From Carposina sasakii (taxonomy: Eukaryota > Arthropoda > Insecta > Lepidoptera > Carposinidae), in contig CP053170.1 in NCBI GenBank assembly GCA_014607495.2, positions 5,456,001-5,520,000 on the forward strand: a stretch of DNA of 64,000 nt, read 5' to 3'. Shown here piece by piece: positions 38,501-53,500 of this stretch (position 1 is the stretch's first letter; every line of letters begins with the position of its first letter). The position numbers were made by a program, and so were the translations under genes. The notes under the pieces were generated by a model, which had not been told where the DNA came from, searched no databases, and was given only the letters and a program-made list of their open reading frames with translations.

Positions 38501-41500
38501 ATCATGAGTAGGTATTCCGCGTTTCATGGCGTAAAAATGTAGAACTCTAAACCATCTACTACAGACAATGGGAAAAAAGTACTCACTGCTTAGCAGGTAC
38601 CTTCTCGATTGCCCGCATGGTAACTGGCTGCGTAGCAAACGACGCCAATGTTTGTACTAGAGACTCCCTAGTGCTGGCCAGAACTATCCTCTGGTCCGCA
38701 AACTCAGAGCAGAGAAATGCTGCACACGATACCACAAGCTCATCCCATTCTGGTGAGGAAGAATATGGGTAAATATATTATAAACTTGATCATCAGAGGC
38801 GTAACTACAGGGGGCAAGTCGCAAAAATTCTACAAGCACCAGGCCGTAAGGGGCTCCCAGTCAAAGGAAAATCCTAACTCCTAACATTATTTACAGGGGT
38901 ATCCGACGAATTTGCCACTGGCTTCAACCGGTATAATCACGCTTAACGAGGAATTTTCGTGTGAATTAGTTGCGGGCAGCTCGCAGTCCACTTGGGACCT
39001 ATGCGTTGTCACCGATTACTTGACAATATCCACCCATTTTATCCAATTAGTTAGAGTCCTACTCACGCTCGCCTTACTGTAAGATGGCTAGATAGAGCTC
39101 TCCATAACAAAACATTAGAGAATAACCCAGACCCTAACCTGGGACATGCTGTACCGGGACCGTAGGGTGCATGTACAGGCGCAGCGTATTGCAGAGCTCG
39201 AGCATGGCATCCACATGGTATTCCGGCACGAAGGCGAACAGGGAGTCTGGAAATTCGGGACCATTTGGTTCTGGAATGGCAAGGGAGCTTTGCAGAACTA
39301 CAGGTTGAATACAAAACTCAATAATATTTTATCTGTGCATACTACATGCAGCGGCTGGGTTCCGCCTCCGCCAGGTCTAACAGATATCTCATTCAGATCC
39401 TTAAAAACTAGATTTTTTATATTAAACAGGCTTACGCTCGACCACAACGCGCCTGATGGTAAGCACCGTTGCAGTCTAGGATGGAGCGCGCTTGTCTAAA
39501 AGAACTCTCGACTTGAAGACCGCAAGGTTATTAGTTCATGGGGAACAGGGATTCAGGCAGGGAATTCCACAGCTTGGCTGTTCGCACATGAATGTAGAAG
39601 CAAAACGCTTAGAGTACGAGTTTTCGGCACTTCAACTGTGAACCGGTGTCGCCTTGACGTTTCCCTGGTCATCCGGTGGTAGAATCGGTTGTTTTATAAA
39701 AAAGGAGATGTTTTGTTACTTGATATTATATGATAAGTTTGTAGAACCATACACTTGGCTAGGATTAGGTCAGTACCTACGTATGGAAAACGATTATTTA
39801 TAATGAAATGAAACTACAAAAGATCATTGAATATGCTTCTGGTTACGGAAGCGTAGTTATGCAGACAGGCAGCTGTAATTATTATCTATCTTCGAAACAC
39901 TGTCACCATATAAATAAGTAGACAGTTAACAGTCAGTAAAGGGTAGCTATTCTAGTTTCATGTCTATCTATTTACCTGAAAATATTATAAGTACCTAAAT
40001 GAAAATATTATTGTAAACAAACATACGGTTCGAAGGTCCACCCAGTTGTGTGTTGGAGCCAATTCGAGGAGTGACAGCTCTTGAGGTTGGGCTCGGCGGA
40101 CTGGGGAAAAGATACCGTATGTTATGTGTGATGATGCGCGGCTTCACTAAAATACATCGACTGCATCTCCTTCCGTGCTTGTCGTAGAAGTCGACTAAGG
40201 AACTCGAGGGCGTTCTCTCAGCAATAAGCTAGCAACTTGTCACTGATCTTATAAATAATTGCCCCGCTATGCAAAGCGTACCTATATGCGGGAGTTAAAT
40301 CGTGATTCTCATTTTGAGAACACACCAGCATAATAAATGGCATAACGGGCAAAACTAATGCAATATTATACAATCACATTGTCGCAAAAAACTAAAGCAT
40401 TTCTCATTTACATATTTCATGATTTTTAGTCTTGTGTTTTTTGTGGCATTTTTTTATCGGATGATGTAAATAAGATTAGTTCTGTTTATAATGATATCCG
40501 TCAAATTCATCAAAATTAAGTTTAGGATAATCAATTATAATCAATATGAGAATAATCAATTATGAGAAAAAAACGAAAATGCTTTTTGAGAATTTTCAGC
40601 ACATACCTCTGATCAGAACTAGAGGTATATTCGAGCTGGAGGGATGCATAGCTGACGCCGGTGCCCAGGAGAGAGCTCTTCCCAGGCAGGATTTCCTTGC
40701 TGGCTCCCTGGTAACAAAGGAATCATGGATCACGACATTGCCAATTATTGCATCATCATACCATCTGGGAAAATTAACATGTGATTTAGAGTCTAAAATT
40801 TTGTGAATAGGTCCTTTATAGTGGGTTATATAAGTACATGACATAGCCCTTCTGTTACACCCTGTATATGCTGCCGGTGTGTCATAATGTATTGGTGTTA
40901 TTTATGTCTTAACATTATTAGGTAATTTTTAAATTTATCCCCCCTGCTTTATTGACCCGCTGTCTGTCTGTCCCTATGTATGCTTAGATCTTTAAAACTA
41001 CGCAACGGATTTTGATGTAGTTTATTTTAATAGATAGTGTGATTTAAGAGGAAAGTTCATATGTATAACTAGCGACCCGCCTCGACTCTGCACGGGTGCA
41101 ATGCCCCTTCACGCGGACGAAGTCGTAGTGCACCGCTGGTTGATAATAAATCGCTAAACTGAGCATAATGTATCTCGAAGTAGTTTACCTGCATATGGTT
41201 GATGTAGTCAGGATCCGAAGCCAACCTCAGAGAATGCAGCACACCGGAGAAGTGCCTGGACAGCTCAGCTTGTCGCTGCTTAGTCCAGACTGCTCCGATC
41301 ACCCATGCCATTTGGAGAGAACTGGCGTCTAATTTTTCCTACAAATTACGACAGATATCATCACTTAGTACTAAAATATCACCATTTTGTGCCAGTAATA
41401 TACTCGAACTCGAAGCTCGAATTGACTATGGGGAAATACCCCCCATGGCAGTCCTGTGGCGTGCCCTAGGGGAGGCCTATGTCCAGCAGTGGACTGCAAT

Positions 41501-44500
41501 AGGCTGATGAAGATGATGAATATGCTCGAAATACGGCAGAAGGATCCTTACCTTGAGGTACATAGGTATGGAAAAATGGTAACCTAATAAAAAGGTGCGT
41601 AATATTTGACTTAATTTCAAATCATGAAAACTATTTCCATCATATTTTACCAGTTTAATTATAACTTTCGGTAAGGTAAATTATAACTAAATATCCTATC
41701 GGTTCTGTTTGGTAACTGTAGGTGGATATATGTAGGTATACATATATTTTTAAAATTATTCGTGTATGGCGCCTAAAGGTAGGTACAAAATTTGAGAATA
41801 CATACTATAAACCTTTATAAATTTAAGCATTTCCTTACTAGGGAATGCAAATCTCGCGAGATTGGGGCTCAAGCGAGATCTTGCGAGTTAATGAATGACT
41901 ATTAGAAATTACATATTAATTAACAAAATATACCAATCAAAAGAAAGATTTTTATGCTCGAGTGCAATCTCGTATAACTCGCGAGATCTCGCACTTTTTT
42001 CGTCGAGATCAATCTCGCTAAAAAAGGCCGAGATCTCGCGAGATCGAGATTGCATCCCCTATTCCTTACCTCGTATACACTTTTGGATCTTTCCAATTCT
42101 TTAAGTATATTCTCCATAATCTCCTTCTTAGCTGCATCTATTTCTGAATTCTTATCTTCTGGGTTTCCTTCTACGAGAAACAATAAAAACTATGGGTAGA
42201 ACAGTTAGTTATTACGGTACAGGGATTGATATGAAACATTAGAGAGTAAATAAATAACCTCATTTATTTAAAGAAAGATACCCGACTGCGTAAATATTTT
42301 GACCCAGTGTCACTCTTTCGACTAAGACTAATGACACCTCTTAAGTTCAAATCCGACATTCCGTTTAGGCTCTAGACTTCTAGAGCATGCCAAAGAAATA
42401 CAGGGTATGGGTGACAGCCAGGCAAATAGTGAAATGCTGAACAAGTACCATGTACGGTACATGATGTACCATTCTGCTGAGTTATACAACAGTGTTATTA
42501 CTCACAGGAAATGTATTTTTGATTTGATTATCAGTAATCTTTGCTCTCCGCGCCAATTGTATAATGGGCTTATTGGTTATTGTGTGACACATTGCTGTTT
42601 TTTGGATCACTTGTGACTCTCCATTAGGGTTGATCAGGTTTTAAACTTTTTTGAGGGCAAGTACTTTTTGAAGATCATCTTTTGGTTAAAATTTTATTTA
42701 AGTCATTATCTGAGGCCTAATTAAACGAACTAAACTATTTTTTTCCTGAACATATGAAAACAATGTCGGAAAATATTGGATTTTTACTGCGGAAAATTTT
42801 CAGTGTTTTTCACTTTAGAATCATGTTCTGAAGTCGTGATATCAATATTTGCCTGGTTGTCACAAACACCCTGTATACATAAAAACATACACTAGAGAAA
42901 CATAACCCTCCTTCTGGCGCAGTTGGGTAAAAATAAATAAATTTTCTTCAAAGTTTACACAAACGTACTTAAATAGACAGTTTTCGAGTTGATAATGGAA
43001 TAATTACCATCAGCTTTGGTCTCCATCTCCAGGGAAATGGCGGCCATCCGCTGCTCGATATCGTGCAGACAGTCGGCCATGTCCAGCTGATTATCCCTTA
43101 ACTCGCACAACTGGAGAAGAATTACAATCATTACATTACGAAAGCATAATATCGAAGTAGTCCAAGTAGCGGCCTCTAATATAAGTAGGTGCATATGAAT
43201 AATGGAGAATAAATTTTCACTATGGGATTTTTGTAATATTATATTACATATTGATATGTAAAATTTTATCGCTTTTACATACATTTGTATAAGACTATTC
43301 ACACTGTTGACTACCTAAGTAACAATGATGATGTGGATTGTAACATCTAATGTTAGTAATTAGCTCACCTTCTCAGCATATTTGATGGCAGCACCATGGT
43401 ACAGAGCCAGTAGCCCATCAATGAGTCTCAAGTATGCTGTCCTGAGGACTATGGAGCCGGCTCCAGGCATCACCGACCGAGTGCCTTTCAGAGCCAGGGC
43501 AGTTTCTCCTGTGGTCCTAAAAATGTTAAAAAATGAAACCTCTTGTTTTTTGTATCCGTCAGGTACTTCCGGGATGGCAGGAGAAGGCGAAAGATCGCGA
43601 GGTATGGTCTAAGAGTGGGCATGAGGTCTATACACAGCAAAGGGAAACTGTTGTTGCAAATATAAAAAATGTCCTGTGCTGATGCAGAATTTTTCTACAA
43701 TACACTCGTACGTACATCAGCTGCATCTCAATCCATGCACGTCGTAAGAGTCGACTAAGGATCTCAAGCATTCTCAGGCTATAAACTAGTAACATGTCAA
43801 TGATTATTTACATCTGTTCCCGCCACGCTAGACGTGGCTGTGGGCACTCCTTAATGATCCTGCAGTTCTGGCTACCCTATTTCGGGAACATAGCCGTGTG
43901 TGTATGTAAAAAATGACGACTACAACTTACTGTAAGACTTGAACATTTTTATGAACATTTTGGGAACACTATTGCGGTATGCCCATTCTCTATCTAACCT
44001 CATCAAAAGACAGAGCCATTTTACTTGTTACCTATTAGCAGCAATAGGCGGCATTGGGGGATGCATGAACCTCGCCATTGAGGAGATCACCTGCGGCAGT
44101 GTGGCTAGTCCTGGAGAACCGGCTGCCATGTCGCTCATACCTAATTACCAGGTTATAATAATGAATAACTTAACTGATCTTAGCATGAGATTCTACTGTC
44201 TTAATGTCTGAATCAAATCGTTGGTCTGATCATCTAACCTCGCACGCAGGCGCAGGCGCAATGTAACATCTCATTTTTTTAACAGGGTGCTAAGGCAATG
44301 TAAAATCGTCTCACATTGATGTTGTTGTTGTCGAAACATTTCCACCAATAGCGGTTAGCTTATATCACGTGAATAAACGAACGTTTTAACGCACGTTTTT
44401 TACCCCAATTCGGGAAACCGCCATATCACTGTGTGTATATTATGTATGTATGTATTAACCACCCGGGAGCATTCACTCTAGTTCGAAGACAAGAAAGATC

Positions 44501-50500: not shown

Positions 50501-53500
50501 CCTGGCTGTCACACACACCTTGTATGTGGGTGATTTTTGGTCGTCAACGTTCCCGAAAACTACGGAATCTCATCATCACGATGATTTTTCTCCATGGAAG
50601 GCATACCTGGGAAATGTCTGGTTTGCATAATATTAGGGTCCAAAGTTAAGTAAATAGACTACGGTTTTCTGCATTAATGCACATTGACGCGTGTAGCAAG
50701 ATTTTTCACGAGAAATAATTAATATCTGTCTATGAAAAAATTAGTATAAACACTGGGCACTATAAATTTCGCCCGATCAAGTAATAAAAAAAATAAAAAA
50801 AATTTACATCGTTTCCCAGCATTTTTTTGGCATAAACTTACTTAATTTGATGTATAGATTACGTACCCTTCGTTAAGGGTGGCAACGAAAAAACATCCTG
50901 TATACAGGGTGTAACAAAAAGGTTATGTTAAGCGAAAAGCTATGTAAATAGCCCACTATAGAGAACCTATCCACAAAATTTGAGATCCGAAATCACATGT
51001 TTATTTTTCCCAATAGTATGGAGAATTTTTAAATATCTCAGGAATTTTCATACAATCTTGAAAAGGAGCTTATAGTCGTGCTTCAAACTATTTCGAGTCC
51101 GCTGTACAAAGTATGTACTGTAAACAAAAAACAACTTGTCCCAAGTTGTTAATAAGGTTTTTATAGAAATATTATCCTAGTTTTCTTAGACATAAAGAAC
51201 ATAAATGAAATTGTATAAGGCGTTACAATTCGGAAGTTCAAATATTCACTATGGGTGTGCCCACCACCGGGCCCTACACCCTCCACTGACCCACTGATCT
51301 GATAATTCATAACTGCGAAAACAGGCACTTGCACTAACTACAATCGCCAGTGCTCGGGTCTGGTTTCGCGTGGCCATTGTAATTAGTGCAAGTGCCTGTT
51401 TTCGCAGTTATGAGTTATCAGATCCGAGGGTCAGTGGAGGGTGTAGGGCCCGGTGGTGGGCGCATCCATAGTGAATAAAGAACATAATCGTGCTACAAAA
51501 TAAATACAAGTATTCCATGGGTTACCGGGCGCCGATGCCTAGGTACTAAAGTATTTCAGAGAAAATAGTCCTTATTTCAATAAGGCTGCGTGTTATAATC
51601 CCGCTGGCAAAAAAAATACTTTTTTCTTTGAAAGTATTTTCTTTCAGTTAGCGCGATTAATAACCTTAATAGATATAGCCTAAGGTTTAATTTATCACTA
51701 CGATACTTGTAACGTAAAGTCTTCCACGTATTTCGGCCCAGACTGCCGACGACCACGGACGGGCACGCACCGTGGGATAGTCTCGTCCGTGGTGCGCGTT
51801 CGTCCGTAGCCGTCGGCGCGTCCGCGTCCGTCTGCATCACGGACCGTACACAATACGTTTATCGAGGAAGTCTATAGGGTATATAGCAATCCGCCCCGGC
51901 TTCGCACGGGTGCAATGCCCCCTTTCGCGGACGAAGTCGTGGGCGACCGCTAGTAAATAAATAAATATTCAGACAACTTTGTTCTTTTAATACCTCGTAT
52001 TCTTTGTAACATCACTATCATTTTTTTCTATGAAAGCACCCCTGGGAAACCACGAGTTTCCAAGATATTGAAGTCCAAAGTTACATAAATATCAGCATTT
52101 TTTTAAATAAATCCATCTGGAAACAGTTAACAAACATTTATTTTAAAGATACCATATTAATATTTTAAAATGTTAGTATTGTAGGTATTTTATCAATGTA
52201 TTCGATTGACATTTGTCAATCGAATACATTGCTTGCAATAAAAAGAGATTTTAAAAAAAATTTTCGTTTCCCAGGGTTGGTTCCATAGAAAAAATGATCG
52301 TTACGTTACAAAGAATACGAGGTATTAAAATAACAACCTTGTCTTTTTACATCCTGTATATTTGTCGATTGTAATTTTTTAACATGTTACTTTCTATACT
52401 TGTTATGGTATATCAAGCATAAGTTGATGAACGTTTCAGGGCTTTATGGCCAACAATTCTAAAGTCAGTTCTCCTTTAACTAAAGGGATTTTTCAAGTTA
52501 CTGACGGGATATACTTCGGGATAATTTTATTACATGGGCATGACAATAAATTCCAGCGGAGTGTACAGTACAACCTTTAACATAGAACAGTGGCCCTTAG
52601 ACGGTAGTTCCTTTTAAGTTCTCACATATTTATCAATATCATTGCAGTTTACATAAATACCTATATGTTATGATCCGGTGGCTTAGTGGTTATAGCGGCT
52701 GGCACGGTTTGCAATGGTCGTGGGTTCGATTCCCACTCGGGTGAAGAATTTTTTCCATTTTCTTTATTAATAATTTTATAAGAAATATCTTACGTGATCT
52801 TGTTGAAGAACACGTATTTGACGAGATGATGCCTCGTATCGCGATGCTGCATGAGGCCACATAGTGTGTAGACTCCCTCTATCTGCTGAGTGAACTTCAT
52901 GTCCTAAAAAAATAGACTAATTCAGGGACCTAAGTCACTAAATCTTAGGTTAAAATGATGTACTAGATGAGTGCATAGCGCAGCATGGCAAGACCACGGT
53001 ATTTCCGACTGGTCGAAGTGGAGGTTATTGGGGGAGGCCTATGTTCAGCAGTGGACTTCCCGTGGTTGAAAATAATGATGATGAATGATGACTAGATGAG
53101 GCTATTTGCACCTTCAAAATCTACGAAAGATGCACTTGCCAGAAGCAATCTAAATGAAAATTTTCTTCACACAAGGCTAAGTACATAAGACGCGATATTA
53201 GAGTGATTTTGCAAGAAAAAAATAAAGTGTTGTTGAACCATTTACAAGTTACATAATGCACAAATGACTTTTTTTAACTGTTCCATAGGTAGTACGAAAT
53301 TCCAGTCTGTGCTGGTTTTAAGTTACCTGTGAAACCAGGTCAAAGAGCAAGCACTCTCTAACAATGCAGTGCTCAAAGATGTCACACAGAGCAGCCTCAT
53401 CCAAGAAGGTCCAGAGCAGGTCTAGCATGCTGCACAGGCGAGGCTGGGGCTGGAGCATCATCTTGCTTGCTAAACCCACCTGTAGGAAAAGGGTATCATT

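What the first reader, a model, noticed from the sequence alone, without database searches (positions are those of the whole stretch)
41831..42170. A hAT-type MITE has duplicated an RNF123 splice donor
Exon 21 (42170-42070, minus strand) is followed by GTAAGGAA. Those 8 bases are exactly the target-site duplication of a 223-bp element (41839-42061) with TAGGG.ATGCAA ends, so the same GTAAGGAA recurs at 41838-41831, beyond the element. The transposon landed at the first base of the intron and the gene now has two identical donors. Use of the distal one would add 231 bases of element plus duplication to the mRNA: 77 codons with no length-based frame change, though possibly with internal stops. 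This is a natural case of transposition creating tandem donors without destroying splicing.
Basis: seen in the sequence. Interest (0 to 1): 0.75.

Follow-up and report, generated by a model that had tools for sequence, protein, structure and literature searches.

The report
Transposon duplicated a moth splice donor
In a moth or butterfly, a small piece of mobile DNA landed exactly on the first base of an intron in the RNF123 gene and copied the splice signal there; the original signal is intact and clearly the stronger, so the insertion is probably harmless, but it shows how this kind of transposon can duplicate a splice site without breaking it.

Summary
On the minus strand, RNF123 exon 21 (42170-42070) is followed by GTAAGGAA (42069-42062), a 223-bp element with imperfect TAGGG.ATGCAA inverted ends (42061-41839), and a second GTAAGGAA (41838-41831). 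Lepidopteran RNF123 proteins place the exon end there. The window's own genome (399 Mb) holds at least 38 other places with this element; 17 independent ones have 8-bp target duplications, so this is a real hAT-type family, and the window copy has lost about 600 internal bases.

The two donors agree only on the intron side (GAG|GTAAGGAA against CTA|GTAAGGAA). The near one scores 10.5 bits, with U1 pairing of -10.1 kcal/mol; the far one 6.7 bits and -5.0. Using the far donor would not add 77 codons: translation stops after 49, 81 nt before the junction. Most likely the near donor does the splicing and the element is an intronic passenger.

Splice sites taken from target duplications are known from Introners. 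The fresher lead: 7 of the 17 relatives have target duplications starting with GT (5.7% expected), so the family's target choice and the donor's GT coincide in register. A genome-wide test was asked for and not answered.

The parts
42070..42170 (-).
   Evidence: tblastn of lepidopteran RNF123, splice model, translation
42062..42069 (-). near copy of target-site duplication GTAAGGAA = donor of intron 21 (GAG|GTAAGGAA)
   Evidence: donor score 10.53 bits, against 0.8-10.6 for 26 other donors of the gene
41839..42061 (-). 223-bp hAT-type non-autonomous element, internally deleted copy (about 603 consensus bases missing after element position 164)
   Evidence: 96.4% identical to the majority sequence of 19 other copies
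42045..42061 (-). 5' end TAGGGGATGCAATCTCG; G at element position 6 is A in all 19 other aligned rows
41839..41862 (+). 3' end, read outward: TAGGGAATGCAAATCTCGCGAGAT
41831..41838 (-). far copy of target-site duplication GTAAGGAA = second, weaker donor-like site (CTA|GTAAGGAA)
   Evidence: score 6.73 bits, U1 duplex -5.0 kcal/mol
41920..41922 (-). first in-frame stop if the near donor is skipped, after 49 codons of duplication and element
41339..42069 (-). intron 21 as it stands, 731 bp (500 bp without element and one duplication copy)
41189..41338 (-). exon 22, tag|GAA..., EKLDASSLQMAW...
42034..42043 (+). palindrome TCTCGCGAGA, subterminal at the element's 5' end
41852..41861 (+). palindrome TCTCGCGAGA, subterminal at the element's 3' end

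Best explanation
A hAT-type non-autonomous transposon inserted across the first eight bases of RNF123 intron 21. Repair of the 8-bp staggered cut copied GTAAGGAA to both sides, so exon 21 kept its complete donor (-3 to +8) while the element and the second GTAAGGAA came to lie in the intron. The near donor remains the working donor; element and far donor are removed with the intron. The far donor is a weak cryptic site; if used, it gives a transcript with a stop after 49 codons, 81 nt upstream of the junction, expected to be degraded or to encode a truncated protein. Shown: sequence, element family, duplication, stop; exon boundary by homology. Inferred: which donor is used, and the fate of the transcript.
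For: Exact sequence. Exon end and phase fitted by lepidopteran proteins. Family with 8-bp duplications in the own genome: 17 independent other copies at 7/8 or 8/8, out of 38 fetched places. Near donor 10.53 bits against 6.73 for the far one, with 26 reference donors of the gene from 0.8 to 10.6; U1 duplex -10.1 against -5.0 kcal/mol. Readthrough is stopped. The near donor is not buried by the element's hairpin (mean unpaired probability over nine positions 0.65, against 0.50 for the empty site and 0.52 for the far donor).
Against: No RNA reads. No orthologous intron without the element could be fetched, so the empty site is inferred from the duplication. The far donor score lies inside the range of real donors of this gene, so some use cannot be excluded. 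The element forms a very stable foldback (-91.1 kcal/mol for the 269-nt stretch, z -6.2) with the two donors at its foot and unknown effect. The donor matrix rests on 26 sites from one gene. Exon 21 itself is weakly conserved.
Confidence: 0.87

Rival explanations
1. Functional alternative splicing: both donors are used, and the far donor makes a regulated, non-productive RNF123 transcript (poison extension) that tunes protein level.
For: Far donor scores 6.73 bits, within the range of 26 real donors of the gene (0.8-10.6); only 3.3% of minus-strand GTs in the window score as high. The extension has an in-frame stop 81 nt before the junction.
Against: Near donor is 3.8 bits and about 5 kcal/mol better; another intronic site, 41551 AAG|GTAAGGAT at 9.87 bits, outscores the far donor, so a good score alone does not show use. 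No RNA evidence.
Confidence: 0.07
2. Introner-like or stwintron-like splicing: the element end plus the G of the second duplication forms an acceptor (CCCTAG|TAAGGAA), so the element is removed as its own intron before the rest.
For: The arrangement GTAAGG...CCCTAG|TAAGG has the layout of a donor split between its first and second base (sequence).
Against: The acceptor scores 2.27 bits, below each of 28 reference acceptors of the gene (4.6-13.3), and 18.8% of AGs on the minus strand of the window do as well or better; two-step removal would lose one base, shift frame and stop after ...VYEKN.
Confidence: 0.03
3. The repeated GTAAGGAA is chance or an assembly artefact, and no duplication occurred.
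For: GTAAGGAA occurs five times in the window against 2.6 expected, so the 8-mer alone is not rare.
Against: The two copies exactly flank an inverted-repeat element whose relatives also have 8-bp duplications; chance identity of two 8-mers about 2e-5.
Confidence: 0.02

Closest known systems
hAT superfamily non-autonomous elements / MITEs (Ac/Ds and Hermes relatives)
   Same: 8-bp target duplications, TAGGG-type inverted ends, subterminal repeats; target GTAAGGAA fits the Hermes pattern nTnnnnAn (PMC2803484: passages and section 6; PMC10368747: passages). The Ac end TAGGGATGAAA is recalled, from no call.
   Different: No transposase was tied to it; the search for hAT transposases in the genome did not complete.
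Introners (DNA transposons that make introns; PMC9860276, passages)
   Same: A splice site is supplied through the target-site duplication.
   Different: Here the duplicated site is the donor of an intron that works without help from the element; the element's end makes only a weak acceptor.
Maize Ds1 exonization (PMC5432752, passages)
   Same: A hAT element at an intron offers extra donors that could lengthen an exon and bring premature stops.
   Different: In Ds1 the extra donors lie inside the element; here the extra donor is the host's own, copied by the duplication.
[D1,2] stwintrons (PMC12403724, passages)
   Same: Layout of an intron-like stretch splitting a donor between bases 1 and 2.
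   Different: Internal acceptor weak and product frameshifted here; that paper reports no target duplication at its stwintrons.

Membership tests
hAT superfamily, non-autonomous | 8-bp target-site duplication | tested here: met
   8/8 in the window; 7/8 or 8/8 in 17 independent other copies out of 38 fetched places. A stricter pass that also asks for 30 well-matched bases at both ends flags 12 of 38 places, 11 of them independent
hAT superfamily, non-autonomous | short terminal inverted repeats of TAGGG/CAGGG type | tested here: met
   TAGGG.ATGCAA at both ends and in the majority sequence of the copies; that this end type is typical of hAT is recalled
hAT superfamily, non-autonomous | target pattern nTnnnnAn (as Hermes) | tested here: inconclusive
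   window target fits; of 17 targets including the window's (L019 not counted), T at 2 in 11, A at 7 in 10, both in 7
hAT superfamily, non-autonomous | mobilised by a hAT transposase with matching ends | not tested
   genome search for PF05699 not answered
MITE | short, repeated, foldback | tested here: met
   223 bp; 39 places counting the window; fold z -6.2. 14 of the 17 relatives with duplications are 640-933 bp, so the window copy is a deletion derivative
MITE | no coding capacity | not tested
   only short reading frames listed in the window copy and in L019; none scanned against a family library for transposase
Introner | element carries a usable splice site and makes an intron | tested here: not met
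   element-end acceptor 2.27 bits, below each of 28 reference acceptors; product frameshifted. Whether the intron is older than the element was not tested on other genomes
[D1,2] stwintron | two consecutive splicing steps restore the reading frame | tested here: not met
   loses one base, stop after ...VYEKN
Alternative tandem donors | both donors used in RNA | not testable with these tools
   no RNA data held
RNF123 orthologue | SPRY domain, collinear exons and RING end in one gene | tested here: met
   SPRY PF00622 E 3.1e-13 in one of seven ORFs scanned; exons from 61421 down to 31875 in the order of lepidopteran RNF123, three proteins printed that together span it, with CTICYARPADTAFVPCGHHSC near the end

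The most novel reading that the evidence does not exclude
The target preference of this hAT family (duplications starting GT, often with A at position 7) coincides in register with the 5' splice site, so these transposons duplicate splice donors again and again, at exactly intron +1, and leave the exon edge intact. Such insertions would be both frequent and tolerated, a standing source of reserve donors.
Probability: 0.2. Interest if true: 0.6.

Novelty: new member of a known kind. Interest (0 to 1): 0.36.

Why it matters
It is a clean natural example of why a transposon hit on a splice donor need not be harmful: an 8-bp duplication starting at intron +1 gives back the whole donor. It also points to a testable rule, that transposons whose preferred targets begin with GT should hit donors in this exact register more often than a random inserter would, which would tie target-site chemistry to the making of spare splice sites. 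For RNF123 itself no effect is shown.

Tried and rejected
Rejected: 77-codon in-frame insertion (stop after 49 codons). Rejected: element as a self-spliced intron or stwintron (weak acceptor, frameshift). Rejected: equal donors.

Led nowhere: scans of viral contigs for the element ends gave two matches each for two patterns and none for a third; the parts read show no element beyond the matched letters, and I take them for chance. In the window the 3' end has no second match at up to three mismatches. Two papers on lepidopteran MITEs (PMC2997013, PMC9033116) do not print TAGGG or CAGGG in their main text (find only); PMC6522560 and PMC13326754 gave nothing on donor duplication (find only).

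Against the novel case: with a matrix from 16 targets of the family, the 26 donors of this gene score no better than random GT-starting 8-mers of the window (38.8% of 1000 random sets do as well with the forward matrix, 96.5% with the strand-symmetric one); register -3 fits the donors as well as or better than register 0 (z 5.8 against 5.4 forward, 7.5 against 2.3 symmetric); and 3.1% (forward) or 14.8% (symmetric) of all 8-mers in the window score as high as GTAAGGAA. So the link rests on the GT.

Rows dropped before counts: of the introns modelled, numbers 12, 16, 17, 18 and 21 and the automatic choice for 20 were left out of the donor matrix, and 20 was put in by hand at 43008, giving 26; introns 1 and 33 were not resolved. 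For acceptors 12, 17, 21 and the automatic 20 were left out and 20 put in by hand, giving 28. Of the 38 fetched places, 19 had a duplication of at least 6/8; L037 (6/8) was dropped, and L025 and L040 were dropped as copies of L021 and L039 (same duplication, nearly the same length), leaving 16; L019 was added. In one search the best-matching pair among one to three candidate ends was taken, which favours matches slightly.

Papers: the titles and abstract starts listed by my ten searches show no paper on a transposon duplicating an existing donor. The lists were capped (15 of 878, 20 of 364, 30 of 105, 25 of 33), asked another question, and the library holds open-licence papers only; Huff et al. 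2016 is not held and is known here only through citing passages.

Full report
WHAT IS THERE. Read on the minus strand, exon 21 of RNF123 ends ...GTGTATACGAG, then GTAAGGAA (42069-42062), a 223-bp element (42061-41839), GTAAGGAA again (41838-41831), then ATGC. The element's ends are TAGGGGATGCAA and, read outward from the other side, TAGGGAATGCAA.

THE GENE. A string of window exon translations found lepidopteran RNF123 proteins at the top of 159 hits (Pectinophora, Leptosia, Papilio, Choristoneura and others; 120 listed). Seven of them were aligned to the window and three printed; together these three cover exons in order from 61421 to 31875 on the minus strand. Exon 21 is weakly conserved: it is matched by two of the three, one ending exactly at 42070 and one running on weakly into the element to 42037. 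The best splice model gives SKSVYE|EKLDASS, phase 0, donor 42070|42069 and acceptor 41339|41338; 13 lepidopteran proteins among the 120 listed hits read VYE-EK or, in Pectinophora, VYE-K there, without an insert. Two other lepidopteran models, P0031 and P0077, depart from this before or just after VYE and do not bear on it. The junction of exons 20 and 21 was set by hand (donor 43008, acceptor 42170), because the automatic choice there was poor.

THE ELEMENT FAMILY. The window lies in a 399-Mb genome of 31 contigs. The element has 71 matches at E <= 0.001 there, which I group into 39 places counting the window itself; the tool calls such counts lower bounds. I fetched the 38 others. Sixteen independent ones have both ends and an 8-bp duplication matching at 7 or 8 of 8; one more, L019, came from a second pass, giving 17. 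Fourteen of the 17 are 640-933 bp long; the others are 161, 229 and 1668 bp. A stricter pass flags 12 of the 38 (11 independent). Against the majority sequence of the 19 aligned copies, the window copy lacks about 603 bases after its position 164 and is 96.4% identical over the rest, with eight differences. It is an internal-deletion derivative, not brand-new. Ends, duplication length and repeat structure are those of hAT elements; no transposase was linked.

THE TWO DONORS. A donor matrix from 26 other donors of this gene gives 10.53 bits to the near site (GAG|GTAAGGAA) and 6.73 to the far site (CTA|GTAAGGAA); the 26 range from 0.8 to 10.6. Computed pairing with U1 is -10.1 and -5.0 kcal/mol. 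The difference comes from the exon side, which the duplication did not copy. Another GT in the intron, 41551 (AAG|GTAAGGAT), scores 9.87, so strong sites of unknown use exist here anyway.

THE FAR-DONOR PRODUCT. It would add 231 nt. In the frame of exon 21 it reads 49 codons and then a stop at 41922-41920, 81 nt before the junction; three more stops follow. So there is no 77-codon insert; a truncated protein or RNA decay is expected (the decay rule is recalled, from no call).

STRUCTURE. The stretch folds very stably as RNA (-91.1 kcal/mol; shuffles -61.9, sd 4.7; z -6.2), with the two ends pairing and the two donors at the foot of the hairpin. The near donor stays fairly open (mean unpaired 0.65 over nine positions), the far one less so (0.52); the empty site gives 0.50.

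WHY EXACTLY THERE. Hermes, a hAT element, prefers targets nTnnnnAn (PMC10368747 and PMC2803484, passages). In table 6 of PMC2803484 (section 6 read), 13 of 62 distinct targets start GT. In this family 7 of 17 other targets start GT, against a GT frequency of 5.7% in the window (binomial 2.4e-5; 7 of 16, 1.5e-5). In the stricter set it is 6 of 11. Donors begin GT, and 11 of 26 donors of the gene also have A at +7, so 42% fit nTnnnnAn against 9.9% of 8-mers in the window, the highest count of the 33 registers tried (next 7 of 26). Most of that excess is simply the T of GT. Thus the family's taste and the donor agree in register. But donors score no better than other GT 8-mers, and register -3 fits at least as well; so the claim is only that GT-loving elements will hit donors at +1 more than a random inserter would. 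Whether they do so genome-wide was not tested.

KNOWN OR NEW. Splice sites taken from target duplications are established for Introners (PMC9860276, passages). Extra donors from hAT elements are known for Ds1 (PMC5432752, passages). A hAT copy that duplicates the donor of a standing intron is a tidy instance of the same principle. I saw no description of such a case in the capped listings of ten searches, which cover open-licence papers only.

VERDICT. Observation confirmed; mechanism of insertion well supported; functional doubling of the donor not supported by sequence and untested in RNA. Probably without effect on the protein, but a good example of the principle.

Noticed in passing
window 41852-41861 and 42034-42043: Two exact TCTCGCGAGA palindromes, the only ones in the window (none in 100 shuffles), sit near both ends of the element. 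TCTCGCGAGA is the vertebrate 'CGCG element' (PMC6192621, start of abstract in the listing) and BANP motif; the element end GCAAATCTCG equals the first ten bases of the oligo that the human BANP BEN domain bound at 1 uM (PMC10206803, passages). Possibly transposase-binding repeats that resemble a host factor site; binding here is untested.
   Followed up: partly
window 41423-41521: A second dispersed repeat in the same intron, with copies near 32274, 29566, 36107, 53031 and 62187; reading frames end GEAYVQQW.AIG, which looks like the end of a retroelement gene (recalled).
   Followed up: no
window 41551, minus strand: AAG|GTAAGGAT inside intron 21 scores 9.87 bits, better than the duplicated far donor; a possible cryptic donor.
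   Followed up: no
P0001 (Pectinophora RNF123), at the junction of exons 21 and 22: This protein model reads VYEKLEAG where 12 other lepidopteran ones read VYEEKL; one residue less, unexplained.
   Followed up: no
window 52672-52744: Rfam tRNA match (33.2 bits) not called by ARAGORN, perhaps a tRNA-derived SINE.
   Followed up: no
L019 1481-3148: The longest fetched copy of the family, 1668 bp, with 8-bp duplication ATTATCAC and no reading frame over 104 aa among those listed; may hold a nested insert.
   Followed up: partly
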